DNA from: Humulus lupulus
Taxonomy: Eukaryota; Streptophyta; Magnoliopsida; Rosales; Cannabaceae
Direction of reading: 5' to 3'
NCBI RefSeq assembly: GCF_963169125.1
Contig: NC_084802.1
Coordinates: forward strand, 27,595,107 to 27,659,106
DNA length: 64,000 nt
A program made the position numbers and the translations under genes. The notes beneath the pieces are model-generated. The model had not been told where the DNA came from. It did no database searches and saw only the letters and a list, made by a program, of their open reading frames with translations. Numbering within the stretch: position 1 is the stretch's first letter; the number at the start of each line of letters is the position of its first letter. Below are positions 5,068 to 63,622 of the stretch, one piece after another.

Positions 5068-8000
5068 TGTAATGCCCTGGATAACCAAGATCGTTACACT
5101 GTGTGTTTAAAATAGTAAAAGACTTGCTAATCAAGTCATTTAAATGAAAATGTGATCCTAAAGTAATAAACAAGTTAGGTTTAAAAGATTTTGGTCATAA
5201 ATGGATAATTTTCATTAAAACAAATATTTGGTACACGGGATCCCAAAAACAGGGTTTAAACGACAGATTTACAAAATTTCCAAAAGTTATATACAATCAA
5301 GGACACTCTAATGGCAAAATGCACATTTTAGGTTTCCGTCCCTGTACAATCCCTCGATCGTGGCAGATGAGCAGCTGACAATGTACACCTCGCCCCCAGA
5401 GCTCTCCAACTCATGGTTGAACCATCTTACCCTTGCCTTTACCTGCACCACGTAGCACCCGTGAGCCGAGGCCCAGCAAGAAAACCATAACATCATAACA
5501 TATTCAATAACAAGAATCAAATAATTTTAAGACATTAACCAGATATTCAGCAGGCCATAACAGACATAAAAAGTAGTGACGACAATCAAGGAATCATCAG
5601 TCTATCATCCAGGTATTCAACAAGCCATAACCATCAGATTAACAACAGTAAACACATTCATAATCAACAGTTTATCACAATCATCATACAATACGTAGGG
5701 TTGACACCCTTAGGCCGCACCCTCAGTTTAACCCACTGACTCTGACTCGCTTAGGCCGAGCCCAGTGTTTAACCCACTAACTCCGGCTCGCTTAGGCCGA
5801 GATCAGTGACTATTTAGCTAACCTCAGCTCTCAGTGGCAGAGCCGCGTCCTGTGCGCAAATATCAGTCCTGAAACTCTTAGGCCATTTATTTCATGCTCA
5901 CGTGGCATATCATAATCATATAGAATTTGTATTCAAATATAATGAAACCTAGTCCCAACACAGCCACACAAAAGGGTGCAGTTTTCTTACCTCATGTTCA
6001 AGTACTTCGGTTAATAAGAACGACCCTCGAGCACGATCCTGTTCTGAGCCCTAGCGAACACCCAATCACAATCCATAAATGGTACTTAGATGAGTTAATA
6101 TTCCAAAGAACAATCCCGGAACCAATCCCGTGCTCTCGGGACCTCTAATTCCACCAAACAGGGTGGTGAAATCGTCTCATGAGCCCCTGAGCAAAAACCC
6201 TAAAAAGGTGTAACGCCGTGGTTACCCCAGAACAGTTGTGGTGAACGGTGAACCGGAAATTTGAACTGCTACTCGAGTCCTTTGGTTATAAACGTGCTCT
6301 AAGTGTTATTAACAGGTTAAGGTGGAAAACAATAAAAAGAAAAGGATATATTTTATTAAGTATATAACTGCTCATGAGCTTATCAAAACATTTACAAGTT
6401 ATTTACAACTCAAAATGGTCACTACTGTTTCAAATTTACAAACCCGCCGACCTAAGCGGCAAAATAGGGTAAACCCCCTAGTTCCTCTGAGAAACTCCTT
6501 GGCCGTGGTGGTCAAGCGGCCGCATATGTACACATCACCACCTAAGCTCTCAACTCAAGGCTGGGTGAGCTTTTCTTTCCCTTTACTTGCACCACATAGC
6601 ACCCATGAGCCGAGGCTCAGCAAGAAAACACAATATAGCATGATATAATATCAACAATGATCATAATAATCATTCAGGACTATCAGTCCAAAACAGATAG
6701 GTGACAGTCTCAAAAATCACTAAATTGGGAATAGCTCCCTTCAACCTTGTGACGATAGGGTCATCGGGGCTTAACAGGTAAGTGAACCTTTCATTAGCTT
6801 AACCAGGATAGGTGCATGGTGACTGGTCACCAACATAACCTTCCTCATGACCATAGAGTCATAACCCTGAAACATCGTTCCCTAGCCATGTGACAAGCGG
6901 TCACCTGGGCCTTAGGCCCTGGCTCTGAGTAACTAGTCTTAGACTAGCCAAGTGCTTATAAGTTTCATCGACCTTAGGGTCGGTCCAGCATTAATGCCTT
7001 AGAGCCATTCAATGCTGATATCGATTAGATCTAATCTTCATTCGGCCCTGCGTTCAGGACGCTTATGCCGTTTCTGACTCTTAGGTCAGTGTCCCTGACT
7101 ACTCAGTACCATATATAAGTAAACAATATTTGCTAGCATTTAATATGCAATCAATGTCCACATTTATCAACCAACATGCCTCAACAACAATCATGCATGT
7201 CATATACACAGGGTGCAATTTTCTCACCTCAGATTCGAGCTAGAGTGAATAAAGGAACGACCCTTGAGAACGATCAACTTTTAGTCCTTTAGCGGTCACG
7301 TAGTCATAACCAAACATGGGACATCATCAATTAAAATGATCAACATAGGTTCCCAAACAAAAATCTAGCCTCTGGGACATCAATCCAAACTAATCCAAGT
7401 AGTAGGAACAATCTCGAGGCGTAAAACTATGTTCCCGGGGTCAAAACACACAAACGGGCTCAACCCTGCTCAAGGGCTGCGGCCCTGACACCTTGGGCCG
7501 CGGCCCCCAGCCACCACAGAAACAAGGGCCGTGGCGCCCAACAAAGGCAATTTCCCCCACCTGCTTCTTTGAGATAGGGCTGCGGCACTCCAAGAACAGG
7601 GCCGCGACCCCCAACCCAGAACACGCACAAACTCGTTCTCCAACATCCCAAAGCCTCCAAAATCATGCCTAAACATTACCAAATCATCAAATCAAAGTTC
7701 CCAAGCTTCCCAATGGTCCAAAACCATTCAAACCCAAGGTTCAATCAAACCAAGAACTCAACGGTTCACAAAATACAATTCAAAGCTTAGAAACTCTAAT
7801 AACTCAAAACATTAAACTTAGATTACCTTTGATTGGGTTGTTTCTCGTCGAATCCTTCGATCAAGAAACTTCTAATCTTTCCTAGGATTGCTATGCCTCG
7901 ATCCTGGCTTGATTCCGACTCCTAGAACTCGAGATTTCTTCGAAATGGCTTCGAACCGTAAGAATGAACTAACGGGAAAGAACGAGAGGTTTTCTAACGT

Positions 8001-9747
8001 ATGTTCTATCTGACAAGCTACTTCAAGCTTAAGTAACCTCAAATAAAACCTAGTGCTTGGGGTCCCAAAAACCTCCCCGGGGACATTATAGTCAAAATTT
8101 CCAGAATTTCATCCTGATCTCAATAACTCCCAATTTATCATCAAATAAACATTCTTATTACCCAATAATTGACCCCGTTATGACAAAACCGCTAATCCAT
8201 TATATAGGACCGTCTCATGCCGAATAGCTCGAATATATCTCCATAATAATGGAATCTCATTCACAAATCACAATATGCACCCAAATATACAAATATACCC
8301 TTAACGGGCCAAATTATCAAAATATCATAATACTCAAATGTGGCCCCACATGCATGCATATAACATCATATTATAATATAATTCATATAAACATGCATAT
8401 ATTCATTTAATGGCATAATTAAGCAGTTATGGCCCTCCCAACCTACTAATCCTGCCATTAAACCACATCGGAGGATTCATGGCATTACAAAAGGTACCCA
8501 AAAATCAAGTTTTGAAAGCTGAGTAGCGCTACAACGCTACCTATTAGGCGTGACAGCGATAGAGCCAGAGACTCTAGCCCACAAAATCGCAGCCTAGCGT
8601 TGTAGCGCTCCCAACCTAGCGCTGATACCAAAATTCTGAAATTCTGGGTTTTCTCTTCGAATTTCCCCAAGCCAAAGCTCCAAAAATCCATCCCTCAAGA
8701 CCTCCAAACCCATAATTAACCATGGAAATCCACTCTACTCATCAAAGGCAACAAAATCTAACCAAGTTTTTCTCAAAAACTCCAACAAATCCCCAAAATC
8801 CATATCCAAGCTCTCAATCCCCAAACATCATAAAAACAGAGTAAGAATTCAGAAAATTCAGAGATAATAGTCAGAATTTTACCTCAGTTGTGACTATCTT
8901 CTCACAAGCTTCAACCTCCAATTTCTGAGCTTAAGTCTCAGCTAAACCCTCCCTAGTTCCAGAGCTTTAACTCATCTGAAATGATGGCCTAAGCTTCCCT
9001 GAATCTTCTGACTGTCCTAAACTTGCCTTCCCTCAGCTTGACCCAGCCTAGAACCAACCTAGTTCCCAGCCGAAATTCTACAGCCCTTCACCTTAACTCC
9101 ATAATTGAGAGAGAACAAACCGTGAGTGAGAAAGAGAGAATTTTGGTTATCTCTCAAAGTTTCCAGTTTCTTCTTAGTATAACACTAACCTCAAATATAC
9201 ACTGAGTATATCTCTAAAAAAAAGACCTTTATGCCCCTCCAAGGTTTACTAATCTTTAAATAGCCCCTAGGGATAAAATGGTCATTTTGCTCCCAATTCC
9301 CGCTAATTCCTCAATTGCTCCTAATATCTATCTATGAATCCTATCATCCAATTAATTACCCAATGTCTAATAATCCCTGATATATTTTCTAAATTCCCGA
9401 AAATACCCAGGCTCCCCCAAGCCGGGCATAAATCCCCGCCGTGACTATTTCCCCAATCCGCTCACTAGGACCGTCTCAAGCCATATATTGCAAATATATC
9501 CACATAATCATGTGGTCTCAACAATTTATCACATATAATTACATTTATGCCCTCAACGGGCCAAAATTACAAATATGCCCTTATAAGCTAAACAGGGCCC
9601 ACATGCATATTTAATACTTATAAACATGCATTTAATCATATCCATATAATCATGCGTTTAATCATTTATTCACATATATACCAATTATGCCCTCCCGACA
9701 CACTAATCAAGGCCCTTAAGCCTTATTAGCAATTTTGGGTCGTTACA
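5068..9747 (-). repeat. Element C 3' LTR (2,394 bp without the insert)
   Basis: On the minus strand it starts TGTAACGACCC at 9747 and ends GGGCATTACA at 5068. Removing the family B solo LTR and one target duplication (6209-8494) leaves 2,394 bp, matching the 2,395 bp of the sister solo LTR at 11004-14194. A cluster of AGCGCT-type words is at 8523-8625. A predicted splice donor (GAG/GTAAAA) is near 8882, and the conserved CTTGCTGGGC...GTGCAG acceptor-like block is at about 5443-5490. Confidence 0.85.
6204..8494 (-). mobile_element. Solo LTR, family B copy 1, with AAAGG target duplication
   Basis: A complete LTR of 2,281 bp (6209-8489) with no internal region. The 5-bp duplication AAAGG flanks it at 6204-6208 and 8490-8494. 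On the minus strand it starts TGTAATGCC and ends GGCGTTACA. It carries five GGGCCGCGGCCC-type words at 7473-7611 and the CTTGCTGGGC-type block (here with CTGAGC for CTGGGC) at about 6587-6632. It lies inside the 3' LTR of element C, so it is younger than C. Solo LTRs arise by recombination between the two LTRs of one element. Confidence 0.9.
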
Positions 9748-11003: not shown

Positions 11004-14000
11004 TGTAACGCCCTGGATAACCAAGACCATTACATTGTGTGTTAATAAATGTGCAAGACTTGCTAACCAAGTCATTTAGTTGAAAATATGTTGCTAAACC
11101 ATTATTGAACTAGGGTTAAAAGATTTTGTTCATAAAAGATAAATTTTTATTTAAATAAGTGTTTGTTACATGGGATCCCAAAAATAAACAGGGTTAAAGA
11201 ATAGTTTACAAAATTTCAAAGGATATAAACAATTACAAGCCAATCTAATGGCAAAATAGGCATCTAGGGTCTCCTGTCCCTGTATCACCCCTCGGTCGTG
11301 GCGGCCAAGCAGCCGACTATGTACATTCCGCCCTAGAGCTCTCCAATTCAGGGTTGGTCCAGCTTACCCTTGCCTTTACCTGCACCACGTAGCACCCGTG
11401 AGCCAAGGCCTAGCAAGAAAACCATATAACAGAGCATGATCAATAATCAATAGTCAAATAATTCACAAGTCATCAATCAGATACTCAGCAGACCATAATC
11501 AATCATCCAGATAATAAACATGCCATAATCATCAGATTAATAATAGTAAACATATCATACAATATCCAGGGTCGACGTCCTTAGGCCGCACCCTCTGTTT
11601 ATCCCACTGACTCCAGCTCGCTTAGGCCGAGCTCACTATTATATAATTAACCTCAGCTACCAGTGGCCGAGCCGCGTCCTTGTGCGCTAATACTAATTCC
11701 AACACTCTTAGGCCATTTAATTCCATGTTCACATGGTATAATACCATCATATGACATTGCATGCAAGTATAGGGAACTCTTAGTCCCAACATAACCACAT
11801 AACCGGGTGTAGTTTTCTTACCTTAGATTTCGGGTGGAGAAAGTGAACTGATTCCGAGCACGATCCCTAGCCTCGAGCCTTGGCGACAAACCTAGTCACA
11901 AGAGTTATCGATAACTATCAACTTCCAGATCAGAAATAAAATACTTAAGGAACAACACTAACCTCTGAGACCTGAATTTATACTAAAGCAGGCAGTAGAA
12001 ATTGTCCCGAGCCCTAGCAACACCAAGAACTCCTCTAAACCTAAAACTCCCAGGCAGGTCGCGACTTGGTTCAGCAAGTCGCGACTTGCCCCAAGTCAGA
12101 GAGCAAGCTCTTTCACCAAAGGGGAGGCGGGTCACGACTTGGCCAAGCAAGTCGCAACATGCCCCCAAGTCAGAGAACTCCCATGGCCAGGAGGGCCACA
12201 CGCGCTGCAGTGCCCCCAGGCTGGGTCGCGGCGTGCTGCGAACCCAGGGAAAACCTGGGTTTTCCTCCTTCTTCTTCCAGCCAAACTCACCAATTTACCC
12301 AGAATTTTCCCCCAACTCCACACTAGACCAATTACGAACTTAGACCCATAATCACACATATTTTCATCCTATACTTCCCAGCAATAAAAACAGGAACCAA
12401 TACCTTAATTCAGCCACAAGAATCACATTACTAACTACTGGAATTTCCTACTCAAACCAACAACCAAAATTCATCATTCAATCCATGCTTAAAAGCTCAA
12501 GTTCAACCTAACCTACTTAGCAACAAAACCCAGAAATAATAAGAGATTAAGGTCAAAGTTTTTACCTCAAATTGTAGTCCAATTCTCATATGAGTTTCTT
12601 GAATGATCAGCTTCAACTCCTTAAGCCTCCTCCTCAATTAAACTTCCAAATTCACAGCCAAATGCCCCAAGTTCACAACCCCTTTCTTTTCCTTAGCTTC
12701 CAAAGCATACCAATGAGAGAGAAGAGGAAATCGTGAGGGAGAGAGAGAAAAGCTGAGAGTTTTCTATTTCTTCAATATTCTACTGCCTTCTCCAATAATC
12801 TAACATGAAAATCTTATTATATCCCTTTACTAACAAAATGACTACTTTATCCCTCCACACAAAGCTAACCTTAATCAAAACTAGGGGTATAACTGTCATT
12901 TGTTCCCAATCCCCACTAATTCCTCAAGTGTTCCTAATATTTACTGTTGACGCCGTTTTTCGTCAACAGATAAAAGAAGAGAGCACGTAAACAATTAAAG
13001 ACAATGGCCAAAAGAAACAAACGAATCAAACACACGGTTTTTTACGTGGTTCAGCAGTTAAATCTGCCTAGTCCACGAGTCTCTGTTATTAACCCCAAGA
13101 TTATCTCTGAACAATTCTTTAGCATGAATTCTACAGAGTTTTCTCTCAAGGATCAGAACTTCGGTCCTTTACAATGGTGCATGGCTTCTCTATTTATAGA
13201 GAAGGATGCAGAATACTATCCCACATATTTTGGGTAGTTACTCTTTTGTGAATAAAAATAAATGGCTTTAAATGCCTTTAATCAGATAAAAAAGGAAACG
13301 TCCCTGATGACCAGGGAATGCATAACTGACTAAATAATATCCCACGATTCTTGGGGATTTACATCAATAAATGAGGATTACTTCTCATGTTTACAATACT
13401 TGTAGATATTCAAGGTGGTTATAGCGTATCTCCAAGACTTTAGCATTTCAGGTTTCATGTCATTATGCGAGCCACTGACATCTCCCGAGCTAACGTTGCT
13501 TTCGAGATGGGATATCGAGCTCAAGACCCATGCTCCGAAGTTCCTGAAGATGAAGGTATTCTCGGAACTACCTTTCGAGATCGAGATCATTTCGAGATCA
13601 CCGCATTCGAGATCATATATCATACTTTGCAGGCTCGACTTACAATCCTAGATCACTCTAATCCTCACGAGACCATTTGTTGCGAACTCAGCTTTCGAGG
13701 TCATATTTACTATGGCTCGAAATCTGGGTATAACATTTACCACTTAAATCCCATCATCCAATTAGTCACCAATTATTTAGCCATAGTCTAATAATCTCCA
13801 ATACATCCCCTGAATTCCTGAAAATACCCTTAAGCTCCCCCGAGCCGGGTATAAATCCCTGCTGTGACTATTTTTCCAAACAGCTCACTAGGACCGTCTA
13901 GAGTCATATGCTGCAAATATATCCACATAATAATGTGGTCTCAACAATTTATCGCAAATAATCACATTTATGCCCTCAATTGGCCAAAATTACAAATATG

Positions 14001-14194
14001 CCCCTATAAGCTAAACAGGGCCTACATGCATACTAATACTCATAATCATGCATCTCATATATCCATATAATCATATAAGCATGCTTATCACATAATCATG
14101 CATTAACTCATTTAAATCACACATAAACTAATTATGCCCTCCCGACACTCTAATTAAGGCCCTTAAGCCTTATTAGTAATTTTGAGTCGTTACA
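11004..14194 (-). mobile_element. Solo LTR, family C copy 2, interrupted by a Tat solo LTR
   Basis: It has the same family ends as the element C LTR: TGTAACGCCCTGGATAACC at 11004 and GTCGTTACA at 14194. Without the Tat LTR and its duplication it is 2,395 bp. Flanks are ATATA (10999-11003) and ATATC (14195-14199), a 4-of-5 match in a TA-rich site, so the target duplication is probable but not clean. CAAGTCGCGACTTG-type words occur at 12057-12161. A predicted donor is at about 12565 and the CTTGCT(A)GGC...GTGCAG block at 11380-11425. It inserted into the interior of a relative, element C. Confidence 0.85.
12940..13740 (+). mobile_element. Solo LTR of a Tat element, TTTAC target duplication
   Basis: A 791-bp LTR (12945-13735) starts TGTTGACGCCGTTTTTCGTC and ends GGGTATAACA, flanked by TTTAC at 12940-12944 and 13736-13740. 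The TGTTGACG opening with an internal TTTTTACGTGGTTCAGC is typical of Tat LTRs as I know them. A TATA-like TATTTATAGAGAAGG lies at about 13190-13204. The right third is rich in CGAGATCGAG words. It is the innermost, and so youngest, layer of this nest. Confidence 0.85.
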
Positions 14195-27200: not shown

Positions 27201-27212
27201 CATGTTTTTCAA

Positions 27213-44959: not shown

Positions 44960-44999
44960 AATTGACGAACCTTCATCTACTATTTACCCCCTCAAGAAG

Positions 45000-45274: not shown

Positions 45275-47805
45275 TGTAATGCCCCAAACTCCAGGGACCG
45301 TTACGGTATGTCTTGTAAACAGTGCTAAACTCGCTAATTGAGTCATTTGGCCAAAATCGTGTAACTAAGTATGATTAGCGGTTTAGGGATTAAAAGTTTT
45401 GGTTAAGATATAACGTTTCATTAGAACTTTACTGTATACATTGGGATCCCAAAAAAAAATATAATTTAAAGGTCTATTACAAGAAAATATTTACAACAGG
45501 ACGATCTAAGCGGCAAAACAGGGTTTAACCCTAGTTCCTCTTTCAACTCTCGGCCGTGGCGCTCGAGTAGCCGCATATGTACACATCGTCACCTAAGCTG
45601 TCCAGCTCAAGGATGGTCCATCTTTCTTTTTCCTTTACCTGCACCACATAGCACCCGTGAGCCGAAGCCCAGCAAGAAAACTTAATATGCTCATGAACAG
45701 TAATAACATGTCATCAAATTATAAGGCACACGCCTAGCAGATATAGCCCTATTCAAGAAGGCAAATGAGTTCACGTAGTGTTGAGTATAACACATCAACC
45801 GATGATCGTAATAATCATCCAGGGTTTTTAACCCTAAATAGAAGAGTGACAATTGTAATAGTCACTGAGGTGGGTTCATTCCCAATAGCCATGTGACGAT
45901 AGGGTCACCAGGGTTTTATAGATAAGTGAACCTTTCACTAGATTAAACAGGATAGGTGCATGATGACTAGTCACCAACATAACCTTCCTCATGACCATAG
46001 AGTCATAACCATGCAGTACTACTCCCTAGCCATGTGACAAGCTGCCACTTAGGCCTTTGGCCCTGGCTCTAAGTAACTAGCTTAGACTAGTCAAGCGCTT
46101 ATAAGATTCATCGACCCTGCGTTCATGACGCTTATACCGTTCTCGGCTCTTAGGTCAGTGATACGCGACCAATGCCGACCCTGACTAGTCAGTGCCATAC
46201 ACAAGTAAGCAATGCCACCAAACATATATCATATGTCAAATATTCGAATACAGGGTATTTAGCATGCTTACTCAATAATTACTAGCACAATTAGGATCAT
46301 GCATAAACACAGAGGCTCAAGCTCTGAACAATCTCATATTCAATATTCATAGCATGCCCTAATCACATGTTTCTCGTGCATTACATTTAAACATCCAACA
46401 TGCATCAAGAATAACCATGCATGTCACATATACACAGGGTGCTGTTTTTTTACCTCTTGTTCGAGCGAGAATTAGAACAAGAACAACCCTTGAGAATGAT
46501 CGATTCTTTAATCCTTAGCAGTCACCTATTCATAACCAAATATAGTCTCCGATTAATGAAAATCAACAAAGATAGGGTCTTGATCTAAACTCCACTCTCG
46601 GGACCCCGAAATGTACCCACACGGTGAGTAGATTCGATCCTAGGCCTTAAGGATTGAAACCCCAAGTCAAAAACCCTTAAAAACACTCAAAATGGGGTTA
46701 TGAAGAAATAGGGTATAGCGCTGTAGCGCTACCCTCCTAGCGCCCCAGCGCTCTTCACAGAGCCAAAACCGCCTAGCATCCCCTGCAGGTAGCGCTGTAG
46801 CGCCTCATTCTGGGCGCTGTAGCGCTACCTCCAGCCAGCAACTGCCCAGAAAATTCTTCCTTCGATTTCACCATTTCTAACCCAAACCAAAAGCTTCCAA
46901 AGATCAAATTATATCCCAAATGAACCCAAATATCACCTCCACATGTCATAGGCACCACAACCACAAGAAACCTAGCCAAAACTCCAATCAATTCCCAACT
47001 TTCCAACTCAAAAACCAGCTGAAACTTAACTAAGAAAACAGAGCAAAAACAAGAGTTCTAATGGCTTAAAACTCACCTCAATCTCAGCAACACACCCTCT
47101 TCAATGGTGAAGCATAACCCTAGCTTATCCTAGCTTGGTTCCTTGGCTTGATTCCTCAAAAAGAGCTTGAAAATTCAAAGAAAAATGGAGATGAAAACCA
47201 TCGGGAGAGAAGGAGGAAATGGGACTCTGTTTTGGTAAGCTTCTACAGCCTTAATGGTTGATATAAATCTTTAAGGGTGAAAAGATCTAAATGCCCTCAA
47301 GTCTAAAATAAAACCTTAACAGTCACCAAGGGCAAAACCGTCCTTTCGCACCTATTTTGTTAATCATAATTAACACCCTCCAATTCCCGCTATTCTCAAT
47401 TACCAATATATCCTGTTACCCCTTTAACTCCCAGCAACACTCTAATCATTAAAATCACCCCGAGACTCACCCCGAGCCCCGAACTTAATCCCGTTATGAC
47501 CAAACCGAACACTTGCATTTCGTGATCGCCTCATGCCAAAAGGCTCGAACAAATTCACATATAATGTGCTACCATTCATAACTCACCCACATGCACGAAA
47601 ATACACAACTACGCCCTCAATGGGCCAAATTACCAAAATGCCCTTAGAATTAAAAATACACCCATATGCCTGTGTTTACCATCATATTATAATATAATTC
47701 ACATAAACATGCATATAATCATTTAATAACACAATAAATCAATTATGGCCCTCCCGACCCCCTAATCAAGGTCCTCAACCTTATTAGGAAATTTGGGGCA
47801 TTACA
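45275..47805 (-). repeat. Element D 3' LTR (2,531 bp)
   Basis: On the minus strand it starts TGTAATGCCCC at 47805 and ends TTTGGGGCATTACA at 45275. TATA-like TTTATATCAACC is near 47262. A predicted splice donor (TTGAG/GTGAGTTTT) is at 47076 and the CTTGCTGGGC...GTGCAG block at 45639-45683, which would make a 1,438-bp intron within the LTR. AGCGCTGTAGCGCT-type words occur four times at 46716-46826. Confidence 0.85.
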
Positions 47806-50082: not shown

Positions 50083-52401
50083 TGTAACGCCCTGGTTACC
50101 CCAGAACAGTTACGGTGAACGGTGGATCGGAAATTTGACTCACTACCCGAGTCCTTTGGTCAAAAACGTGCTCTAAGTGTAATTAACAAGTTAAGGTATA
50201 AAACCAATAAAAAGGAAATGGATATTTTCATTACAAACTGCTCTGTAGAGCTAATCAAAACATTTACAAGTTGTTCTCAGTACAAAATTGTCACTACTGT
50301 TTAAGATTTACAAACCCGCCGACTTAAGCGGCAAAAATAGGGTAAACCCCCTAGTTCCTCTGAGAACTCCTTGGCCGTGGTGGTCAAGCGGCCGCATATG
50401 TACACATCACCACCTAAGCTCTCCACTCAAGGCTAGGTGAACTTTTCTTTTCCTTTACCTGCACCACATAGCACCCATGAGCCAAAGCCCAGCAAGAAAA
50501 CATAACACTATATGTAAATATTATCAAATGATTATCATTATAATCACACTGAGCATATAGCTTTCAAAAAAATGAGTGAACATCACATGAGGTCCTGATA
50601 AACCATACTGAGTGACTGACAAGCATGTCACTGTTTCAAGTGGGAGAGTGGCTGCTAGGTAAGCCACTAGCCTCCAAGCGCTTATTTCATTCATCGACCC
50701 TCGAGGTCGGTCTGGCATTAATGCTCTTTGAGTCATTCAATGCTGATAGTCGATTAGATCTAATCTTTGTTGACTTGCGTTAACACGCTAAGGCCGTCCT
50801 GACTAATGAGTCAGCGCAATGTGACCAGTGCCCAGTACCACTGCCGAACCTAACTAATAAGTCACAGCTTCACAGTTGATACTAGCACCTTTGCCAAATC
50901 TGAATAATGAGTCAGTACCATGCACAAGTGAGCAACACATTCTAAGCATTCTATATTCAATCCATGTCCATATTTACACAACCAACATGCCTCATGAATA
51001 TCCATGCATGTCACATTTGGGGCGCAGTTTCTTACCTCTGGTTCGAGCTAGAATGAATAAAAGAACGACCCCTGAGAATGATCAACCTTTAGACTCCTTA
51101 GCGGTTACCTAATCATAACCAATTAGAAACCATTAATAAAATAAATCAATGAATGGTTTATAATCTAAACCACACTCCCGGGACCAATCCCCCACTCTCG
51201 AGACTCTCAAACTACTCAAAAGGGGCAAAGGAACTAACCCTCGAGCCTTAGAAACCATCCCGAGCCCCAAAAATAACTTTCCCTGAAACTGACCTAGCGC
51301 CTTGGCGCTGCCCACCAGCGCTGGGGCGCTGCCCCAGAAACAGAGAGGGCTGCTCTCTGCCCTGCATAGCGCTGGGGCACTAGGACTGGCGCTGGGGCGC
51401 CAGCTTCAAACCAGCAGCTACACTGAATTTCCTTCCTCGCGATTCCTCTTGAAACCAACCTTCTAAATCAATCCCAAACCTTACCAAAACATCCAATTCA
51501 ACCCCTAAACCTCATCTACGTCACCCCCTCACCAAAACCCAATCAAACATACACAAAAACTCCCCTTGATTCCAACTTTCTACATCAAAAACCAAAAGCT
51601 GAAAACTAAAAGGAAAACAGAGTAACACCTGAAATTCATGGACAATTCCTTACCTCCAACTGGTTTTGAATCCTCCTTAGTAGATGAGCTAAGTCTACAA
51701 CCTCCAAGCTTTGATTTCCTAGCTTGCTACTTCAATTTGGGACCAAAAACCTCAAAGGAAGATAGGGAGGAAATGATGTACGGGAAGGAGAAAACCTTAC
51801 TCTGTTTTTATTCTATAACCTTCTACAGCCACTTAAAACATATATAACCCAAGCCAAATGACCTTAATGCCCCTAGGTCATTTAAAGCTTCTAAAGTCTC
51901 CCCAAGGGTAAAATCGTCATCTTTTACCTATTTCGTTAATCATAATTAACGCTCTCCAATTCTCGCTAATCTCAATATTCTCGAACACCAATAATTCACA
52001 TCCTGTTACCCTTTTCACTCCCGGCAACTTTCTAATCATTAAAACATCCCGAGACTCACCCCGAGCCTCGTACTTAATCCCGTTATGACTAAACCGCTAC
52101 TTTAATATTAAAAGATCGTCTCATGCCGAATAGCTCGAACGAATCCACATATAATGTGGCCTTAACAATATATCACCGACACGCATACAAATATACAATT
52201 ACGCCCTCAACGGGCCAAATTACCATCACACCCCTGTAACTAAAATGTGGACCCACATGCATGCATTTAACGTCATATTATAATATAATTCTCATGAACA
52301 TGCATAAAAACATTTAATGGCATAATTAAACAGTTATGGCCCTCCCGGCCTACTAACCCAGCCATTAAACCATATTAGGGAATCCGGGGCATTACAATCA
52401 A
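50078..52401 (-). mobile_element. Solo LTR, family B copy 2, ATCAA target duplication
   Basis: A 2,314-bp LTR (50083-52396) with ATCAA at 50078-50082 and 52397-52401. Its ends match copy 1 at 6209-8489 closely. It carries AGCGCTGGGGCGCT-type words at 51294-51402 rather than the GGGCCGCGGCCC words of copy 1. Predicted donor (GGAG/GTAAGG) at 51653 and acceptor block at 50459-50502. It sits between the Gag and protease parts of element D. Confidence 0.9.
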
Positions 52402-53967: not shown

Positions 53968-53972
53968 GCATG

Positions 53973-55881
53973 TGTAGAGTCCAAGAACTTTACTTAGCTA
54001 ATTGTTTAGTAGTATTATAGTATATTTAAGTGTTATCTTTGTTACTATGGATTTTTGGTTCAGACCGGGAGTTATTTGGACACTCATAGTAGTACTTATA
54101 GATTTTCTAAGTTTAACCTATAGTTTAAGAATATTAAGTATAACCTAAGGTTTGATTAATGTGTCTGATATTAAGGATTATATTATTATATTATAAGGTT
54201 TAGACATCAACCAATAGGATTTTAAGCACATGTTTTGAATGGTAATTAAGGATTAAGTATTTTTGAGGATTAAATTAAATAAGGGTAAAAGTTTGAATGT
54301 ATAGGGTCAGTCAGCAGCTTTGAGTACGTTGAGGGCTTAGTCAAGGCTGTTTACTCCATTCAAACTCAGCTAAAAATGTGTAAATTCGTGTTTAAATATT
54401 CAGCGTAAGCCGATATATCGCAACTATACGGGGCGATATGTTGCAGCACGTAGATACGGAAAACACGAATCGATGCACGGTCGCCTCGGGAACAAAGGTC
54501 CAGGCGATATATCGCCTATAGGGGGCGATATATCGCCTCCACCAGCATGTTTTCAAATACATTTGAATTCTTTTCCCTTCAGCCATTCAAACTCCTTCAA
54601 CAGTCCAGCATCTTCTGAACGAGTCTTCAGCCTCTGCTGAACGATTATTCAAATGATTTTCACCTAAAAAGCCATTATTTTTATTCAAGTAAAATCAAGA
54701 TATTTTCATTCCCAAACTCTATAAATAGGACCTAGTACCCAGCCATTATTCACCATTTTCTCTAAGTTCAGAGGCTGCTAGTGTTAATTGAGTGTGAGAG
54801 TGTAAACACTTGGTTTGGGGAAAAACTATAAGCTTAAACATCATAAGCTTATCAAACACTTTGGGAAGTGAGTTCTATAGTATTTCGGTGGAGGTTAGAG
54901 TGATCTTGCAATCTTTGAGGTAAACCCAAAACTCTAGTTCCTTTCTGTATTTTATGTTATTTCCTTTTTCAAAAACCTTCTACTCAGTCCCCTAACCTTA
55001 TTCTTATTTTGGTTAGGGAATCCAAGCTCTTAAGCATATAAGTCGGTAAGTATGTTTTTATGGTTTAGTCTTTCCATCTCTTTCATTTCATCTCCTTTCT
55101 TAGACTCACTCTTTCTTATGGTTTTAGGAGTGTTCCAAAAGTCCCAACTCAGTCCATAATCCCGGTAACTTTGGTAAGGAAAATAGGCTAGAATCAACAT
55201 GTTATGTGCTTATGTTATCTATATGTTTTATGTTATTAAAAGTGTTATGATATGTATATGTGTATGTTTGTAGGCTTGGGCATATGACCCATATGACTAA
55301 CAAGACCCCAAATGGGTTATGGGCATATGACCTACTTAGCTAGTAGGACCCCACTAATCCCATGGGCATATGCTTGTTTAGTCTATGGGACCCCAAGTAA
55401 TAATGGCCATTATAATAAGTGTATGTTATATGTGTTATGTTAAGTCTTTATGTTTTCTTATGAAATTATGTATATGATTTTGTGTTAGATTTTCCTTGCT
55501 GGGCATTAGGCTCACTCCTTTCTGTTTATGTGCAGGAAAATAAGTTTAGAGGTGGAAAGATTCGTGACGCTTGGAGAACGTGTATCGATGATGAATGGAG
55601 TCAAGGGGGCCGAGCGTTATTCGATTCGAGGATATAGTCTCCTTTTATGTTTTTATGGTTTTTATGTGTATTTTCCGCATTATTATGTAATGTCTTTTAT
55701 TTTAAATCTTGTTTTGTTTTAAAGACAATGGGATCCCAAAATCCTTCTTAGTATTCTGTTGATTTGTAAATAACTCTTATTTTGCAAGTTACTCAATAAA
55801 TTATGGTATTTTCGTAAAAATGTAGGATTTATGTATAGTTTTGTTAATGGTCCAAATAGTCTAGATTAGTGGGTCATTACA
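53973..55881 (+). repeat. Tekay 5' LTR
   Basis: Starts TGTAGAGTCC and ends GTGGGTCATTACA. GGCGATATATCGCC-type words at 54411-54540, TATA box at 54720, candidate splice donors at 54920 (TTTGAG/GTAAAC) and 55046 (GTCG/GTAAGT), and a CTTGCTGGGC...GTGCAG acceptor-like block at 55496-55535. A repeated phrase, GGGCATATG(A/C), occurs several times at 55270-55375. Confidence 0.95.
54720..54727 (+). promoter_or_regulatory. TATA box of the Tekay 5' LTR
   Basis: TATAAATA followed by GGACC, in the middle of the LTR as expected for the U3/R border. The same sequence is in the 3' LTR at about 62461. Transcription would start about 25-35 bp downstream. Confidence 0.65.
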
Positions 55882-55883
55882 GT

Positions 55884-55895
55884 TGGTATCAGAGA
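55884..55895 (+). other. Tekay primer-binding site
   Basis: TGGTATCAGAGA begins two bases after the 5' LTR and matches the 3' end complement of initiator methionine tRNA (usual site TGGTATCAGAGC) except for the last base. Confidence 0.85.
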
Positions 55896-56041
55896 AAACG
55901 GTTCCTTCGCATGAAGTTCTCCTCGATACACATGCTCAAAGCTCCGAATCGGACCGCCAAGTAAGTGTTTAAGTTACAAGTTACAAGTTACTTTGTCTAT
56001 GTGTATAGCTAACAACTTTAGTGTTTATGTTTCAGTTAAGA

Positions 56042-56509: not shown

Positions 56510-57024
56510 ATTAGAAGTTTTTAAATGTTTGTTTTTTTTTTTGATTGTAATAAGTGAAATTATTTTTCCAAATGAATAAACATGCTATTTGAATATCATG
56601 TGTGAGTTTGATTTTTTTACAATCATAATGAATACTAAATAAAATGAATAATGACTAAGTTCGGTGAGGGTGGATACAAATCAATGAACCTGGTTTCCTT
56701 ATTGAGAGTTAGGGGGCCTTAGTAGTGGGAACGATTTTACTGATCCCAGCCCTCCCTCAATATGGTTAACTTTGGAACAAAGATAAGTTTCGAGCCTGAG
56801 AATTAAGTCATATAGGATTATTAGAAACACACTTAGAAAATAAAGATGACTTGTTTTTCTAAGTATAGAAACCCGCTCTAATAATAAATAAAGACCTATA
56901 TAATTTTTCATAAGAAGTCATAATAAATAGGTCCGAGACATGTTTGTTTAGAATAAGTTTTTGCCTTAGAGCCTATTAGGAAAAGTTCTAACATGTTTCT
57001 TTTAACTGTTAGAACTCTGCTACG

Positions 57025-60000
57025 ATGTCTCTCCGAAGATCTGCTCGCACCAACGGGAACGCTTCCAACGATGTTCCAGCGACCAATGCGGTCCCTACCG
57101 TTCGCCGAAGGAGAGTGAGTGTTACTGCTCGCCGCAACGCGCCGGCACAGCCAGCTGACAACACTGCAGAGATTGCCAGACTGCGACAGCAAGTCGAGGA
57201 ACTTCTGCAGCAACAACGCCAACAGGCTCAATCTCAGCCTCAGCCTCCGCCACAGCCGCAGCCGCAGCCGCAGCCGCAGCCACAGCCAATGGCCCCAGCA
57301 CCCCAACAAGTTGGTCCGTATGGGGGATGGCCTATGACGAACTACGCTCCTTATCCTGTACAGCATATGGAGCCAGTGTACGAGAGGTTCCGCAAGCAGC
57401 ACGCTCCAAACTTCGAAGGGACTACGGACCCCTTTGAAGCAGAAGAATGGCTAAGGAATGTGGAGCCGATCCTAGCCCACATGAACCTCAATAATGCTGA
57501 CCGCATATCCTGCATCTCATCTTTACTCAAGAAAGATGCCAGGATATGGTGGGATTTGGTCCAGCAATCCCACGATGCTGCCACTATGACGTGGACCCGA
57601 TTTGTGGAGCTCTTCCACAAGAAGTACTACAATTCAGCGGTACTTGCTACGAGAGTTGAGGAGTTCACCAATCTGAAGCAAGGGAACTTAACAGTGGCAG
57701 AATATGCTCGTCAGTTCGATTGCTTAGCGAAGTTCGCAGCAGAGTTGGTTCCAACCGACTATCTAAGGGTGAACAAGTTTGTTAGAGGACTTCGCCCGAA
57801 GATCGAGATGGGGGTTAAACTAGCAAACCCGGGAAACACTTCATATGCCGACGTTCTTGAGACAGCAATTGAAGTAGAAAGGTTGCAAGCCAACGTGAGC
57901 AAAGAAGAAGTCAGCAAGCCGGAACCTAGGCAGCAGAGCCAACCTCAGGCCAGTCGGAACAACAATCAGTTCAGCAACAGTCAGTCCAACAACAACGGTA
58001 ACGGACAGAAGAGAAGGCATCCTGACAACAAGCAAGCCGACAACAATAAAAGGGCACGACCAAGTAATGGGGGAAATAGGTCGGGCTACGTGGAATACCC
58101 GCCATGTGCCAAATGTCAGAAGAAGCACCCCGGAGAATGCCGTGCCAACACCAAGGAGTGTTTCAACTGTGGTCAAGAAGGGCATCGTAAAAGAGACTGT
58201 CCTCAGCAAAAGCCGGAAGGAAAGAAGGACGAAAAGATGGTTCCTGCTCGGGTTTTTGCTTTAACCCAAGGAGAGGCGGATGCTAGCAACAAGGTGGTCA
58301 CAGGTCAGGTTTCCATCCTCAATAAATTATATCATGTATTATTTGATTCGGGAGCCACTCATTCGTATATTTCGTTAGGAATGATAGATAAACTAGACAA
58401 ATCTAGTGAAAGATTTAGAACTAGGTTTGCAACCGAGTTGCCTTCGGGCAAAGTAGTTCTATCATCACGAATTGTACGAGGCGTACCAATCAAGATTGAG
58501 GACAAGGAACTAGAAGGAGACCTGATAGAGCTGGTGATCAAAGACTTCGACGTCATACTAGGCATGGATTGGCTAGCACGGCATGGCGCAACTATCGACT
58601 GCAGACGCAAGAAGGTGATGTTCGAGACTCCTGACGGCCAGAAACTGTGCTTCATGGGACAAGCTTCAGGACTACGCACCCCGTTAATATCATCTCTCAA
58701 AGCTCAGAGAATGATGGAGAAAGGATGTCAAGCATTCTTAGCCAACATCACGAATGTGGAGAAGGAGACATCACTCAAAGTTGGAGATGTTCGAGTCATA
58801 CAAGAATTTCCAGAAGTATTTCCCGATGACTTGCCAGGATTGCCGCCAACTAGAGAAATAGACTTCACGATAGAATTAGTACCGGGCACCGAGCCTATCT
58901 CTAAGGCACCATACCGGATGGCACCTACGGAACTCAAGGAGTTAAAGACACAGCTACAAGAACTCCTAGACTTGGGTTTCATTAGGCCAAGCCATTCACC
59001 ATGGGGAGCTCCGGTACTATTCGTGAAGAAGAAGGACGGAAGTATGCGCATGTGCATAGACTACCGTGAGCTGAATAAAGTAACAATTAAGAACAAATAC
59101 CCGCTACCTCGGATCGATGATTTGTTTGATCAACTCCGAGGCGCGACTGTATTTTCTAAGATCGATTTACGGTCCGGGTATCATCAGCTCAAGGTAAAGG
59201 GAGAAGATATCCCTAAGACAGCCTTTAGGACTCGTTATGGACATTACGAGTTCTTGGTTATGTCTTTTGGTCTTACTAACGCGCCAGCCGCGTTTATGGA
59301 CTTAATGAATAGGGTCTTCAAAGACTACTTGGATAAATTCGTCGTTGTGTTCATCGATGACATTTTAATTTACTCCAAGGATGAAGTGGAGCACGAGGAG
59401 CACTTGAGGATGATTTTGACGCGATTGAAGGAGCACCAACTCTACGCGAAGTTCAAGAAATGCGAGTTTTGGCTCTCACAAGTGGCGTTCCTCGGGCACA
59501 TTATATCGAAAGACGGAGTTGCAGTAGATCCATCGAAGGTAGAGGCCGTGAAGGATTGGCCTAGACCAAAGAACGCGTCGGAAGTAAGAAGCTTCTTAGG
59601 GCTAGCAGGTTACTATAGAAAGTTTGTAGAGGGCTTTTCTAAGATAGCCACTCCACTCACCAACCTGACCCAGAAGCAACAAAAGTTTAACTGGAATGAT
59701 AAGTGTGAGGAAAGCTTCCAGTTGCTTAAGGATAAGCTTTGCTCAACACCAGTACTTAGTGTCCCAACACCCAACGACAAGTTCGTTGTCTACTGTGATG
59801 CATCAAAGTTAGGATTGGGATGCGTACTGATGCAGAATGACAAGGTGATAGCCTACGCCTCACGTCAGTTAAAGGAGTATGAACAACGCTATCCAACTCA
59901 CGATATGGAGTTGGCAGCGGTGGTCTTTGCGTTAAAAATATGGCGCCATTATCTTTACGGAGAACGGTGCGAGATTTATACGGACCACAAAAGTTTAAAA

Positions 60001-61677
60001 TACTTCTTTACTCAGAAGGAGCTTAACATGAGGCAGCGCCGGTGGTTGGAATTAGTAAAGGATTACGACTGCGAAATCCTATACCACCCGGGGAAGGCAA
60101 ACGTAGTTGCCGATGCACTTAGCCGAAAAAGTTATGGGAACTTAGCAGCCTTATCCGGAATAGAAAAGCCACTACAGCAGGAGCTTATCAGTGCCGGAAT
60201 AGAAGTAGTTGTAGGCAAGCTGGCTAACTTGTCTATCCAATCGAATCTGCTAGAAGACATACAAAATGGTCAGAGACATGATGATTCGCTAGCAACGCAC
60301 ATGGATGCAGTCAGAGAAGGCAAGACTACAGATTTCTCAATATCCAGTCAAGGTTTATTGAGATATAAGGATCGGGTATGCGTGCCAGACGATCAAAGTA
60401 TTAAGAAGACGATCCTAGAAGAAGCGCACAACACCCCATACTCGGTTCATCCAGTGTCTACCAAGATGACTCATGACATCAAGGCAGTCTATTGGTGGCC
60501 AGGGATGAAGAAGGACATAGCGGAGTATGTATCTAAGTGTCTGGTATGCCAGCAAGTGAAGGCAGAGCATCAGCGGCCTGCAGGATTATTGCAACCGCTT
60601 AGCATATCGGAGTGGAAGTGGGACGATATAGCCATGGACTTCGTGACGGGTCTGCCAAAGACAAATAAGCAGCATGATTCTGCTTGGATAGTCATAGATA
60701 GACTAACCAAGTCGGCTCATTTTCTGCCTGTTAAGACTTCTTATACGGCAGACCAATATGCAGACATCTACATCCAAGAGATTGTACGATTGCATGGAAT
60801 CCCCAAGACGATAGTATCAGATAGAGGATCAGTGTTTACGTCAAGATTTTGGAAAAGCTTACAGCAAGCCATGGGTACTAAGTTAAGTCTTAGTACAGCT
60901 TTCCATCCTCAGACAGATGGGCAGTCAGAGCGTACGATTCAGATTTTAGAGGATATGCTACGCGCATGTGTACTTGACTTCGGAGGATCGTGGAACAAGT
61001 ACTTACTGCTGATCGAGTTCTCGTACAACAACAGCTACCAGTCGATGATCGAGATGGCACCTTATGAGTTGCTATATGGAAGAAGGTGCCGATCACCGTT
61101 GCACTGGGACGAGGTAGGAGAAAGGCAGCTTCTAGGGCCCGAAGCTGTTAGGCAAGCTCAAGAGGCAGTAACGCTTATTAGAAAGCGTATGCTTGCTGCT
61201 CAAAGCCGACAGAAAAGCTATGCAGATACCAAGCGACGCGATGTGGAGTTCCAAGTTGGAGATCAAGTCTTCCTGAAGATATCTCCTATGAAGGGTGTCA
61301 AGCGGTTCGGGAAGAAAGGCAAGCTCAGTCCCCGATTCTTAGGTCCTTTTGAGATATTGGACAAAGTGGGACCAGTTGCGTATAGACTAGCCCTACCGCC
61401 AGCACTAGCCGATAGTCACAACGTCTTCCACATCTCGATGTTACGCAAATATGTGTCAGACCCATCTCACGTCCTCAAGTACGACACCATAGCGCTCCAG
61501 AAAGACTTAAGTTACGAGGAACGACCGGTTAGCATCCTAGATAGGGGGATGAAGCAGTTACGGTCCAAGAGCTTTCCTATAGTTAAAGTCCTATGGAGCA
61601 ATAGTTCTGAACGCGAGGCAACGTGGGAGTTGGAAGAGGACATGCAGAGCCGGTATCCGGAGTTATTTGGTAAGTAA
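57025..61677 (+). CDS. gag-pol: Tekay/Del chromovirus Gag-Pol polyprotein
   Basis: An uninterrupted 1,550-residue frame. Gag 1-400: basic N-terminus, Gln/Pro-rich repeat (about 61-95), capsid (about 115-290), zinc knuckle CX2CX4HX4C at Cys379, Cys382, His387, Cys392. Protease: LFDSGATHS, Asp441. Reverse transcriptase about 615-800: [24 protein letters not shown], and FIDD with Asp778/Asp779. RNase H about 917-1035: Asp925, Glu962, Asp987, Asp1030. Integrase: His1135, His1142, Cys1172, Cys1175 zinc finger, and D,D35E triad Asp1205, Asp1266, Glu1302. A chromodomain lies about 1500-1548 ([30 protein letters not shown]). The chromodomain and sequence type place it in the Tekay/Del chromoviruses, whose chromodomain is thought to steer integration to heterochromatin. 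All catalytic residues I looked for are present. The loop HPVSTKM differs from the common HPGSTKM. Confidence 0.97.
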
Positions 61678-61700
61678 ATTTCGAGGACGAAATTCTTTTT

Positions 61701-61713
61701 AGTAGGGGAGAAT
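61701..61713 (+). other. Tekay polypurine tract
   Basis: AGTAGGGGAGAAT directly abuts the 3' LTR start TGTAGAGTCC and follows GAGGACGAAATTC, the usual sequence between the end of pol and the tract in this lineage. Confidence 0.85.
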
Positions 61714-63622
61714 TGTAGAGTCCAAGAACTTTACTTAGCTAATTGTTTAGTAGTATTATAGTATATTTAAGTGTTATCTTTGTTACTATGGATTTTTGGT
61801 TCAGACCGGGAGTTATTTGGACACTCATAGTAGTACTTATAGATTTTCTAAGTTTAACCTATAGTTTAAGAATATTAAGTATAACCTAAGGTTTGATTAA
61901 TGTGTCTGATATTAAGGATTATATTATTATATTATAAGGATTAGACATCAACCAATAGGATTTTAAGCATATGTTTTGAATGGTAATTAAGGATTAAGTA
62001 TTTTTGAGGATTAAATTAAATAAGGGTAAAAGTTTGAATGTATAGGGCCAGTCAGCAGCTTTGAGCACGTTGAGGGCTTAGTCAAGGCTGTTTACTCCAT
62101 TCAAACTCAGCTAAAAATGTGTAAATTCGTGTTTAAATATTCAGCGTAAGCCGATATATCGCAACTATACGGGGCGATATGTCGCAGCACGTAGATACGG
62201 AAAACACGAATCGATGCACGGTCGCCTCGGGAACAAAGGTCCAGGCGATATATCGCCTATAGGGGGCGATATATCGCCTCCACCAGCATGTTTTCAAATA
62301 CATTTGAATTCTTTTCCCTTCAGCCATTCAAACTCCTTCAACAGTCCAGCATCTTCTGAACGAGTCTTCAGCCTCTGCTGAACGATTATTCAAATGATTT
62401 TCACCTAAAAAGCCATTATTTTTATTCAAGTAAAATCAAGATATTTTCATTCCCAAACTCTATAAATAGGACCTAGTACCCAGCCATTATTCACCATTTG
62501 CTCTAAGTTCAGAGGCTGCTAGTGTTAATTGAGTGTGAGAGTGTAAACACTTGGTTTGGGGAAAAACTATAAGCTTAAACATCATAAGCTTATCATACAC
62601 TTTGGGAAGTGAGTTCTATAGTATTTCGGTGGAGGTTAGAGTGATCTTGCAATCTTTGAGGTAAACCCAAAACTCTAGTTCCTTTCTGTATTTTATGTTA
62701 TTTCCTTTTTCAAAAACCTTCTACTCAGTCCCCTAACCTTATTCTTATTTTGGTTAGGGAATCCAAGCTCTTAAGCATATAAGTCGGTAAGTATGTTTTT
62801 ATGGTTTAGTCTTTCCATCTCTTTCATTTCATCTCCTTTCTTAGACTCACTCTTTCTTATGGTTTTAGGAGTGTTCCAAAAGTCCCAACTCAGTCCATAA
62901 TCCCGGTAACTTTGGTAAGGAAAATAGGCTAGAATCAGCATGTTATGTGCTTATGTTATCTATATGTTTTATGTTATTAAAAGTGTTATGATATGTATAT
63001 GTGTATGTTTGTAGGCTTGGGCATATGACCCATATGACTAACAAGACCCCAAATGGGTTATGGGCATATGACCTACTTAGCTAGTAGGACCCCACTAATC
63101 CCATGGGCATATGCTTGTTTAGTCTATGGGACCCCAAGTAATAATGGCCATTATAATAAGTGTATGTTATATGTGTTATGTTAAGTCTTTATGTTTTCTT
63201 ATGAAATTATGTATATGATTTTGTGTTAGATTTTCCTTGCTGGGCATTAGGCTCACTCCTTTCTGTTTATGTGCAGGAAAATAAGTTTAGAGGCGGAAAG
63301 ATTCGTGACGCTTGGAGAATGTGTATCGATGATGAATGGAGTCAAGGGGGCCGAGCGTTATTCGATTCGAGGATATAGTCTCCTTTTATGTTTTTATGGT
63401 TTTTATGTGTATTTTCCGCATTATTATGTAATGTCTTTTATTTTAAATCTTGTTTTGTTTTAAAGACAATGGGATCCCAAAATCCTTCTTAGTATTCTGT
63501 TGATTTGTAAATAACTCTTATTTTGCAAGTTACTCAATAAATTATGGTATTTTCGTAAAAATGTAGGATTTATGTATAGTTTTGTTAATGGTCCAAATAG
63601 TCTAGATTAGTGGGTCATTACA
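61714..63622 (+). repeat. Tekay 3' LTR
   Basis: A 1,909-bp copy of the 5' LTR. By eye the differences are: T/A in AAGG(T/A)TTAG, C/T in AGCA(C/T)ATG, T/C in GGG(T/C)CAG, T/C in GAG(T/C)ACG, T/C in ATGT(T/C)GCAG, T/G in CCATTT(T/G)CTC, A/T in ATCA(A/T)ACAC, A/G in ATCA(A/G)CATG, T/C in GAGG(T/C)GGAA, and C/T in GAGAA(C/T)GTG. Confidence 0.95.

What the first reader, a model, noticed from the sequence alone, without database searches (positions are those of the whole stretch)
7473..62285. Clusters of GC-rich palindromic words recur in LTRs of unrelated retrotransposons
Seen directly: AT-rich LTRs each contain a cluster of about three to five short GC-rich, self-complementary words. They are GGGCCGCGGCCC-type at 7473-7611; AGCGCTACAACGCT-type at 8523-8609; CAAGTCGCGACTTG-type at 12057-12161; GCGATGCATCGC-type at 37917-38021; GGCCGTGGCC-type at 40306-40439; AGCGCTGTAGCGCT-type at 46716-46826; AGCGCTGGGGCGCT-type at 51294-51402; and GGCGATATATCGCC-type at 54411-54540 with its copy in the 3' LTR (about 62152-62281). 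Inference: the exact word is free to vary while self-complementarity and CpG content are kept, which looks like selection on structure or on binding of a dimeric factor. Possible roles are RNA kissing loops (compare retroviral dimer-initiation palindromes), protein sites, or methylation-sensitive control. In the intact Tekay the cluster lies upstream of the TATA box, and in element D downstream of it, so no single role is proven.
Basis: partly seen in the sequence, partly recalled or inferred. Interest (0 to 1): 0.8.

Follow-up and report, generated by a model that had tools for sequence, protein, structure and literature searches.

The report
Paired palindromic sites in retrotransposon LTRs
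Several families of plant jumping genes carry, in their control regions, small sets of mirror-image DNA words set about two helix turns apart, which look like docking sites for a paired DNA-binding protein whose preferred word changes from family to family.

Summary
Repeated GC-rich palindromes far exceed dinucleotide shuffles and recur in random stretches of the same 2.48-Gb genome. A word is two inverted 5-6 bp half-sites around 2-4 central bases. Neighbouring words are usually 20-23 bp apart, pairs usually about 50 bp apart. Genome-wide, AGCGC-N4-GCGCT pairs number 3,965 against 15 for an equally palindromic reversed control; the 50 places listed all have a 7-8 nt gap although 1-31 was allowed. 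Five window LTRs are related to each other, yet their words change largely in step (AGCGC to AGGGC; CAAGT). The Athila-like element has the same half-site in its LTR and, internally, before its 3' ORF. Best reading: sites for a dimeric, sequence-specific DNA-binding factor. RNA pairing is less likely but not excluded. The closest known thing is the palindromic repeated motif of Sirevirus (Ty1/copia) LTRs; here it occurs in Ty3/gypsy elements with another core and a fixed pitch. No factor was identified. Verdict: new variant of a known kind.

The parts
8524..8632 (-). Cluster of LTR A: four slots, AGCGC-N4-GCGCT type, two slots decayed
   Evidence: centre spacings 22, 49, 22
7473..7611 (-). Cluster of solo LTR B: five words, AGGGC-N4-GCCCT type
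   Evidence: spacings 21, 31, 51, 22 (weak extra hits left out)
12055..12161 (-). Cluster of solo LTR C: four words, CAAGT-N4-ACTTG type
   Evidence: spacings 20, 53, 20
46716..46827 (-). Cluster of LTR D: four words, AGCGC-N4-GCGCT type
   Evidence: spacings 22, 52, 22
51295..51402 (-). Cluster of solo LTR E: four words, AGCGC-N4-GCGCT type
   Evidence: spacings 21, 51, 20
54409..54537 (+). Cluster in the 5' LTR of the intact Tekay-type element T: four words, GGCGA-N4-TCGCC type
   Evidence: spacings 23, 71, 21 (weak extra hit left out); 16 of the LTR's 34 CpGs in one 150-bp stretch
62150..62278 (+). Copy of the same cluster in the 3' LTR of T
37917..38022 (-). Cluster in the 3' LTR of the Athila-like element: GGCGA-N4-TCGCC type
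   Evidence: spacings 21, 22, 49 (weak extra hits left out)
43369..43453 (-).
   Evidence: (spacings 21, 50)
40306..40439 (.). Weak cluster, GGCC-type words, in an inserted fragment of about 1.5 kb (read by eye)
   Evidence: loosest setting only; z -0.81
5068..6208 (-). LTR A, part left of the nested solo LTR B
8492..9747 (-). LTR A, part right of the nested solo LTR B, followed by the PPT of a minus-strand element
6209..8489 (-). Solo LTR B, nested in A, AAAGG at both ends
11004..14194 (-). Solo LTR C
45275..47805 (-). LTR D, followed by the PPT of a minus-strand element
50083..52396 (-). Solo LTR E, ATCAA at both ends
53972..55881 (+). 5' LTR of element T (1,910 bp, 99.5% identical to the 3' LTR)
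61713..63622 (+). 3' LTR of element T
54719..54728 (+). TATA box CTATAAATAG of T, about 180 bp after the cluster
57013..61677 (+). Open gag-pol frame of T (gag, protease, RT, RNase H, integrase, weak chromodomain)
43898..44983 (-). Integrase part of the Athila-like element
   Evidence: PF00665, PF17921
41399..42094 (-). 3' ORF of the Athila-like element (PF20167)

Best explanation
The clusters are arrays of binding sites for a dimeric, sequence-specific DNA-binding factor that acts on transcription of the element. Each word is one dyad (two inverted 5-6 bp half-sites); two words about two helix turns apart form a unit, and two units, usually about 50 bp apart, form the array. The factor's half-site preference shifts between element families, and when it shifts the sites of a cluster shift largely together. 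Shown: dyads, repetition, fixed spacing, sharing of half-sites between lineages, joint change of words. Inferred: that a protein binds, that it is a dimer, that it regulates transcription. Whether host or element encodes it is open.
For: Arms pair in 128 of 160 cells, against 157 of 640 when centres are shifted by 3-4 bases. Between LTRs D and E arms agree in 37 of 40 positions and centres in 5 of 16, while their long shared block is 67.9% identical. Genome: 3,965 AGCGC-N4-GCGCT pairs against 15 for the reversed, equally palindromic control pair; the 50 places listed, with 21 different spacers, all have gaps of 7 or 8 nt where 1-31 was allowed. In 40 sampled LTRs, 25 of 37 palindrome pairs at 20-22 bp have similar arms, and 0 of 66 at 14-19 or 23-45 bp; 100 shuffles give a mean of 0.01 (max 1) at 20-22 bp. 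LTR B has G at position 3 in 5 of 5 words where D and E have C in 4 of 4 each, and C at the mirror position in 3 of 5, although B and E share five blocks of 59.5-85.8% identity. The Athila-like element has the same half-site in its LTR and before its 3' ORF. In T the cluster lies about 180 bp upstream of the TATA box. Mismatches inside arms are strand-symmetric, 9 G.T and 10 A.C.
Against: No factor was found. The place relative to the TATA box differs: upstream in T, about 1 kb downstream in C. Centres are not free: in T they are as alike as the arms (0.88 against 0.83), A-D agree in 10 of 16 central and 29 of 40 arm positions, and TACA makes up 50 of 100 centres in the listed genome places. 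Within T's family arm columns are not significantly less variable than CpG-matched columns of the same LTR (5 of 40 against 7.6 expected, P 0.17). The fitted period is 9.75-10 bp rather than 10.5 (R 0.80 against 0.68), on few, non-independent spacings. In the 600 bp examined, 15 of 40 sampled LTRs show no cluster and only 18 of 40 have a similar pair at 20-22 bp. The spacer between the two pairs is alike beyond chance in only 2 of 10 LTR pairs (B-E, C-E), so words may have changed in place or been swapped in as a block. RNA folding of 8 of 9 clusters is also far better than shuffled.
Confidence: 0.62

Rival explanations
1. RNA structure: words pair with each other in the transcript (hairpins or kissing/dimer contacts), and self-complementary words are kept so that any copy can pair with any other.
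For: RNA folds of 8 of 9 clusters have z from -2.9 to -6.0; three other LTR stretches -0.38, -0.12, +1.37. A 21-22 bp pitch would also give stems with 5-8 nt loops. Papers link Sirevirus palindromes to strong predicted structure and small RNAs (passages).
Against: Complementarity alone would let each hairpin drift apart, but words of a cluster share most arm positions (0.73-0.90) and change largely together. No G.T over A.C excess on the sense strand (9 against 10). Fold topology differs: neighbouring words pair in D and T, nested or outer pairing in A and C. T's cluster is upstream of TATA, C's well downstream.
Confidence: 0.15
2. By-product of reverse transcription and repeat turnover: template switching at quasi-palindromes and duplication of short units creates and homogenises the words without function.
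For: In LTR C the two pairs look like a duplication of one 52-bp unit (84.6% identity), and homogenisation explains joint change of words. Mixed arrays exist (L058, L067, L083).
Against: Across 21 different spacer sequences the gap is 7 or 8 nt, and 0 of 66 pairs at other short spacings are similar. A pitch of 21-23 bp occurs in the LTRs of T, which show no BLAST similarity to A-E, and in both clusters of the Athila-like element. The control pair of equal make-up occurs 15 times against 3,965.
Confidence: 0.13
3. Host silencing module: the repeats matter mainly as sources of small RNA or CpG methylation, with the element keeping them only as a side effect.
For: Clusters concentrate CpGs (16 of 34 in T's LTR). 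Sirevirus palindromes are described as small-RNA hotspots (passages).
Against: An element gains nothing by keeping a silencing target; the spacing rule and the copy before the 3' ORF are unexplained. No methylation or small-RNA data could be used here.
Confidence: 0.1

Closest known systems
Palindromic repeated motifs (RM) of Sirevirus (Ty1/copia) LTRs, PMC2829016 (passages and two sections seen, the second in part)
   Same: Palindromic, CpG-bearing, multi-copy words; mostly a different word in each family; LTR location, upstream of TATA in T; further copies before a 3' ORF of the same element.
   Different: Host elements are Ty3/gypsy; core GCG-N6-CGC or other in place of CGG-CCG; 4-5 words per LTR; a fixed pitch of about 21 and 50 bp, which the parts I read do not describe; place relative to TATA not constant.
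Variable 5' CpG islands of Del (Tekay-type) LTRs, PMC4029996 (passages, outline, one section seen)
   Same: Presumably the same element lineage; CpG-rich, fast-changing patch in the LTR; proposed link to escape from silencing.
   Different: That paper reports islands in most monocot groups and none in eudicot Del elements; the words palindromic, symmetr-, inverted and tandem have no occurrence in it.
VANC target motifs of VANDAL DNA transposons, PMC10398659 (passages seen) and PMC5735166 (listing only)
   Same: Short non-coding motifs in repeats that evolve synchronously and differ between related families.
   Different: DNA transposons; tandem motifs, with no occurrence of palindrom- or dimer in PMC10398659; an element-encoded reader is known there and not here.

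Membership tests
Sirevirus RM arrays | Repeated palindromic word with high similarity inside one element | tested here: met
   within-cluster arm identity 0.73-0.90
Sirevirus RM arrays | CGG-CCG core | tested here: not met
   half-sites AGCGC, AGGGC, CAAGT, GGCGA, GTGGC; the paper's own exception is Tnd-1
Sirevirus RM arrays | Carried by a Ty1/copia Sirevirus | tested here: not met
   T has the Ty3/gypsy domain order with integrase after RNase H
Sirevirus RM arrays | Additional copies before the env-like gene | tested here: inconclusive
   cluster 43369-43453 lies before the PF20167 ORF of the Athila-like element; that this ORF is env-like is not shown
Sirevirus RM arrays | LTR copies just upstream of a TATA box | tested here: inconclusive
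   true for T, false for C; only imperfect matches in B and D, none in A, E and the Athila-like LTR
Sirevirus RM arrays | At least eight copies per element | tested here: not met
   4-5 per LTR; Athila-like element 4 in the 3' LTR plus 3 internal
VANC-type self-recognition | Family-specific motifs that change in step | tested here: inconclusive
   change largely in step, but half-sites are shared between families
VANC-type self-recognition | Element-encoded protein that binds the motif and removes silencing marks | not testable with these tools
   a conserved leader ORF exists in T but no binding evidence; model unusable
Retroviral dimer-initiation palindromes | Palindrome exposed in a hairpin loop of the 5' leader | tested here: not met
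   T's cluster is upstream of TATA, and the words are predicted to form stems
Tekay/Del lineage (element T and LTRs A-E) | Place in an RT phylogeny; chromodomain; LTR ends | tested here: inconclusive
Athila lineage (36.8-45 kb, minus) | Place in an RT phylogeny | not tested
   integrase and PF20167 found; LTR and PPT signs recognised from memory

The most novel reading that the evidence does not exclude
Ty3/gypsy families of this plant carry an address code: paired dyads at a two-turn pitch, read by a tetrameric (two-dimer) factor whose half-site specificity diversifies with the family, so that families control their own copies and escape repressors or parasites of others. An element-encoded reader, such as the conserved leader ORF of T, would make it a retrotransposon counterpart of the VANC system.
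Probability: 0.2. Interest if true: 0.87.

Novelty: new variant of a known kind. Interest (0 to 1): 0.64.

Why it matters
If right, a control device that its discoverers reported as specific to Sireviruses among the Ty1/copia elements they compared is also used by two Ty3/gypsy groups, and its words turn over in step while their spacing stays fixed. That gives a natural series of matched sites for finding the factor that reads them, and a direct test of whether retrotransposons diversify their promoters in an arms race with the host. One half-site type alone has 3,965 exact pairs in this genome.

Tried and rejected
Helical phasing as proof of DNA binding: the period fit is broad, best at 9.75-10 bp, so it is offered only as a hint. 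Purifying selection on arms in T's family: a first count looked strong but came from changes private to the window copy; with minor alleles the effect is not significant. RNA families: none in Rfam at gathering score. Relatives in IMG/VR: none confirmed. LOB-domain factors as reader: two paper searches gave nothing usable, so I name no host factor. Leader ORF of T as reader: homologues found, no Pfam match above cut-off, structure model too poor for a fold search (pLDDT 44). Integration-site palindromes (PMC6911290, passages) concern target sites, not LTR words. Asked but did not complete, because the genome tool stayed unreachable: GGCGA pairs. Not asked: mixed pairs, three-word spacing, AGGGC and CAAGT pairs. 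The half-site class per locus is crude: some differences are one-base or register shifts. In one search the left flank of A crosses the border of the nested LTR B, so its rows there say nothing.
Full report
What is there. The window lies in a 2.478-Gb plant genome; the species was not given and I did not determine it. Nine listed stretches hold repeated GC-rich palindromes. Palindromic starts with at least three similar words within 150 bp number 8, 18 and 12 under three settings, against 0, 0.1 and 0 on average in 20 dinucleotide shuffles. A second scan, which asks for two palindromic 14-mers with at least 8 of 10 arm positions alike, gave 22 pairs against a mean of 0.18 and a maximum of 2 in 100 shuffles; it caught seven clusters, missed those at 12057 and 40306, and had one outlier at 30708. 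One listed cluster, 40306-40439, is weak: it appears only in the loosest setting, and its RNA fold is no better than shuffled (z -0.81).

Which elements carry them. Element T (53972-63622) is intact in outline: LTRs of 1,910 bp, 99.5% identical, GCATG on both sides, and an open gag-pol frame with gag, protease, RT, RNase H, integrase and a weak chromodomain hit. The search with 701 bp of its LTR scored 40 of 2,615 candidates; all 40, the window's own two included, are 98-100% identical, so the cluster sits in a young, amplified family. LTRs A to E (clusters at 8523, 7473, 12057, 46716, 51294) are related to one another: shared blocks of 58.8-85.8% identity, similar terminal bases, one orientation; B is a solo LTR nested in A, C and E are solo LTRs, A and D are followed by a polypurine tract that shows the minus strand. 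They show no BLAST similarity to T. The stretch 36.8-45 kb, minus strand, has integrase domains and a PF20167 ORF and looks like an Athila; that name, like Tekay for T, was not tested with a tree.

Anatomy of a word and of a cluster. A word is two inverted half-sites of 5-6 bp around 2-4 central bases. Arms pair in 128 of 160 cells, against 157 of 640 when the centre is shifted. Spacings between neighbouring centres are A 22, 49, 22; B 21, 31, 51, 22; C 20, 53, 20; D 22, 52, 22; E 21, 51, 20; T 23, 71, 21; Athila-like LTR 21, 22, 49; Athila-like internal 21, 50 (the automatic list there also contains weak extra hits in B, T and 37917, which I left out of this line, and the 40306 list is not used). 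So pairs about 21 bp apart recur in LTRs without detectable similarity, with usually about 50 bp between pairs; T has 71.

The genome. With the pattern AGCGC-N4-GCGCT, gap 1-31, AGCGC-N4-GCGCT there are 3,965 places (each counted on both strands because the pattern is palindromic) and 15 for the pattern read backwards, which is just as palindromic. The listing shows the first 50 places, all on the first 20 Mb of one contig; all 50 have a gap of 8 (39) or 7 (11), with 21 different spacer sequences; of their 100 centres 50 are TACA, 21 CCCA, 11 CACA and 11 TATA, strand-free. Twenty random 10-kb stretches (190 kb without N) gave 44 similar-arm pairs against a mean of 1.40 and a maximum of 5 in 20 shuffles; some of the 44 look like ordinary tandem repeats, but clusters stand in four of the stretches: L031 (20, 51, 21), L036 twice (22, 46, 22), L037 (22, 72) and L046 (21, 87, 22). 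A polypurine-tract plus LTR-start pattern of the A/D type has 5,802 and 5,770 matches, control 0. From its 100 listed places I fetched 600 bp from 40. The first 20 had a similar pair in 14, shuffles 0.54 on average (max 4 of 20); all 40 had one in 25, of which a few (L054, L059, L076, L081, L086) are not clean GC-rich clusters. With no requirement of similarity, 37 palindrome pairs lie at 20-22 bp and 25 of them are similar, against 0 of 66 at 14-19 and 23-45 bp; 100 shuffles give 0.01 similar pairs at 20-22 bp; 18 of 40 places contribute.

How the words change. A, D and E share the half-site AGCGC; B has AGGGC and C has CAAGT. Yet by the longest blocks B is nearest to E (85.8% over 471 columns, further blocks 78.4, 74.0, 78.6 and 59.5%), and C to A (81.3% over 433, 70.1% over 1,020, 66.1% over 236). 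Centre-aligned, B's words differ from those of D and E by a mirror exchange: position 3 is G in 5 of 5 words of B and C in 4 of 4 of D and of E; the mirror position is C in 3 of 5 words of B, G in 4 of 4 of D and 3 of 4 of E. In the sampled LTRs there are mixed states: AGCGC-CGCG-GCCCT in L067, AGGGC and AGCGC...GCCCT in L083, CGCGC...GCGCA beside CGGGC...GCCCT in L058. Places with at least 90% identical flanks share the half-site in 8 of 8 pairs, at 80-90% in 39 of 50, at 70-80% in 26 of 64, below 70% in 1 of 1; this covers only places with a class and at least 150 aligned columns, window LTRs included, and the class call counts one-base differences. Between D and E the arms agree in 37 of 40 positions and the centres in 5 of 16; for A-D it is 29 and 10, for A-E 29 and 4. 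The spacer between the pairs is alike beyond chance in 2 of 10 LTR pairs, the right flank in 7 of 10, so change in place is likely but replacement of the whole block is not excluded. The Athila-like element has GGCGA-N4-TCGCC both in its 3' LTR and, 5 kb away, between pol and its 3' ORF; T has the same half-site.

Mechanism. Largely joint change of the words of a cluster, in both arms, while spacing and flanks persist, is what a changing sequence-specific reader would impose; dyads with less constrained centres point to a dimer, the fixed pitch to two dimers working together. That a protein binds is inferred. RNA pairing remains possible because folds of 8 of 9 clusters are much better than shuffled (z -2.9 to -6.0), but such folds follow from any repeated palindrome; topology differs between clusters, mismatches show no wobble excess (9 G.T, 10 A.C), and T's cluster lies upstream of its TATA box whereas C's lies about 1 kb downstream. 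A test of polymorphism in 28 copies of T's LTR did not show significant protection of the arms (5 of 40 segregating columns, 7.6 expected, P 0.17).

Literature. Bousios et al. 2010 (PMC2829016; passages, section 9 and the first part of section 15) describe palindromic repeated motifs in 13 Sirevirus elements, mostly a different word in each, 12 of 13 with a CGG-CCG core, in the LTR before TATA and, in elements with an env gene, before that gene; they call the motif specific to Sireviruses, compared with other Ty1/copia elements. A 2016 follow-up is not held; two papers that cite it say the palindromes are small-RNA hotspots, and one that they evolve rapidly (passages). Cruz et al. 2014 (PMC4029996; passages, outline and one section) report variable 5' CpG islands in Del LTRs of monocots and none in eudicots. 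VANC targets are described in PMC10398659 (passages). I found no report of such clusters in Ty3/gypsy LTRs in the listings; the library is open-access only, so this is weak evidence of absence.

Verdict. A real, widespread and orderly feature; it works like Sirevirus repeated motifs but fails their defining core, host lineage and copy number, so I call it a new variant of a known kind.

Noticed in passing
56009-56509 (+): An open frame in the 5' leader of T, before gag-pol, encodes a conserved protein of about 155-160 aa with an acidic tail: 27 database homologues at 53-93% identity, no Pfam match above cut-off in the five tested. It recalls ORF0 of Retrosat2/RIRE3/RIRE8 by place, which PMC3485330 reports only from grasses (passages).
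   Followed up: partly
LTR E sense about 1470-1600 (window about 50800-50930); L076 from +1009: A second, AT-richer repeated palindrome, TGACT-N4-AGTCA and decayed forms, stands downstream of the GC-rich cluster.
   Followed up: no
21344-22304, 26657-27216, 30799-31348: Three stretches of tandem-like repeats.
   Followed up: no
28018-29301 (+); 24135-24794 (+): A MULE-type transposase frame and a pectin methylesterase inhibitor-like gene.
   Followed up: no
605-1145: Inverted fragment of a B-type LTR (89% over 550 columns); by its offset the cluster would fall just outside the window.
   Followed up: no
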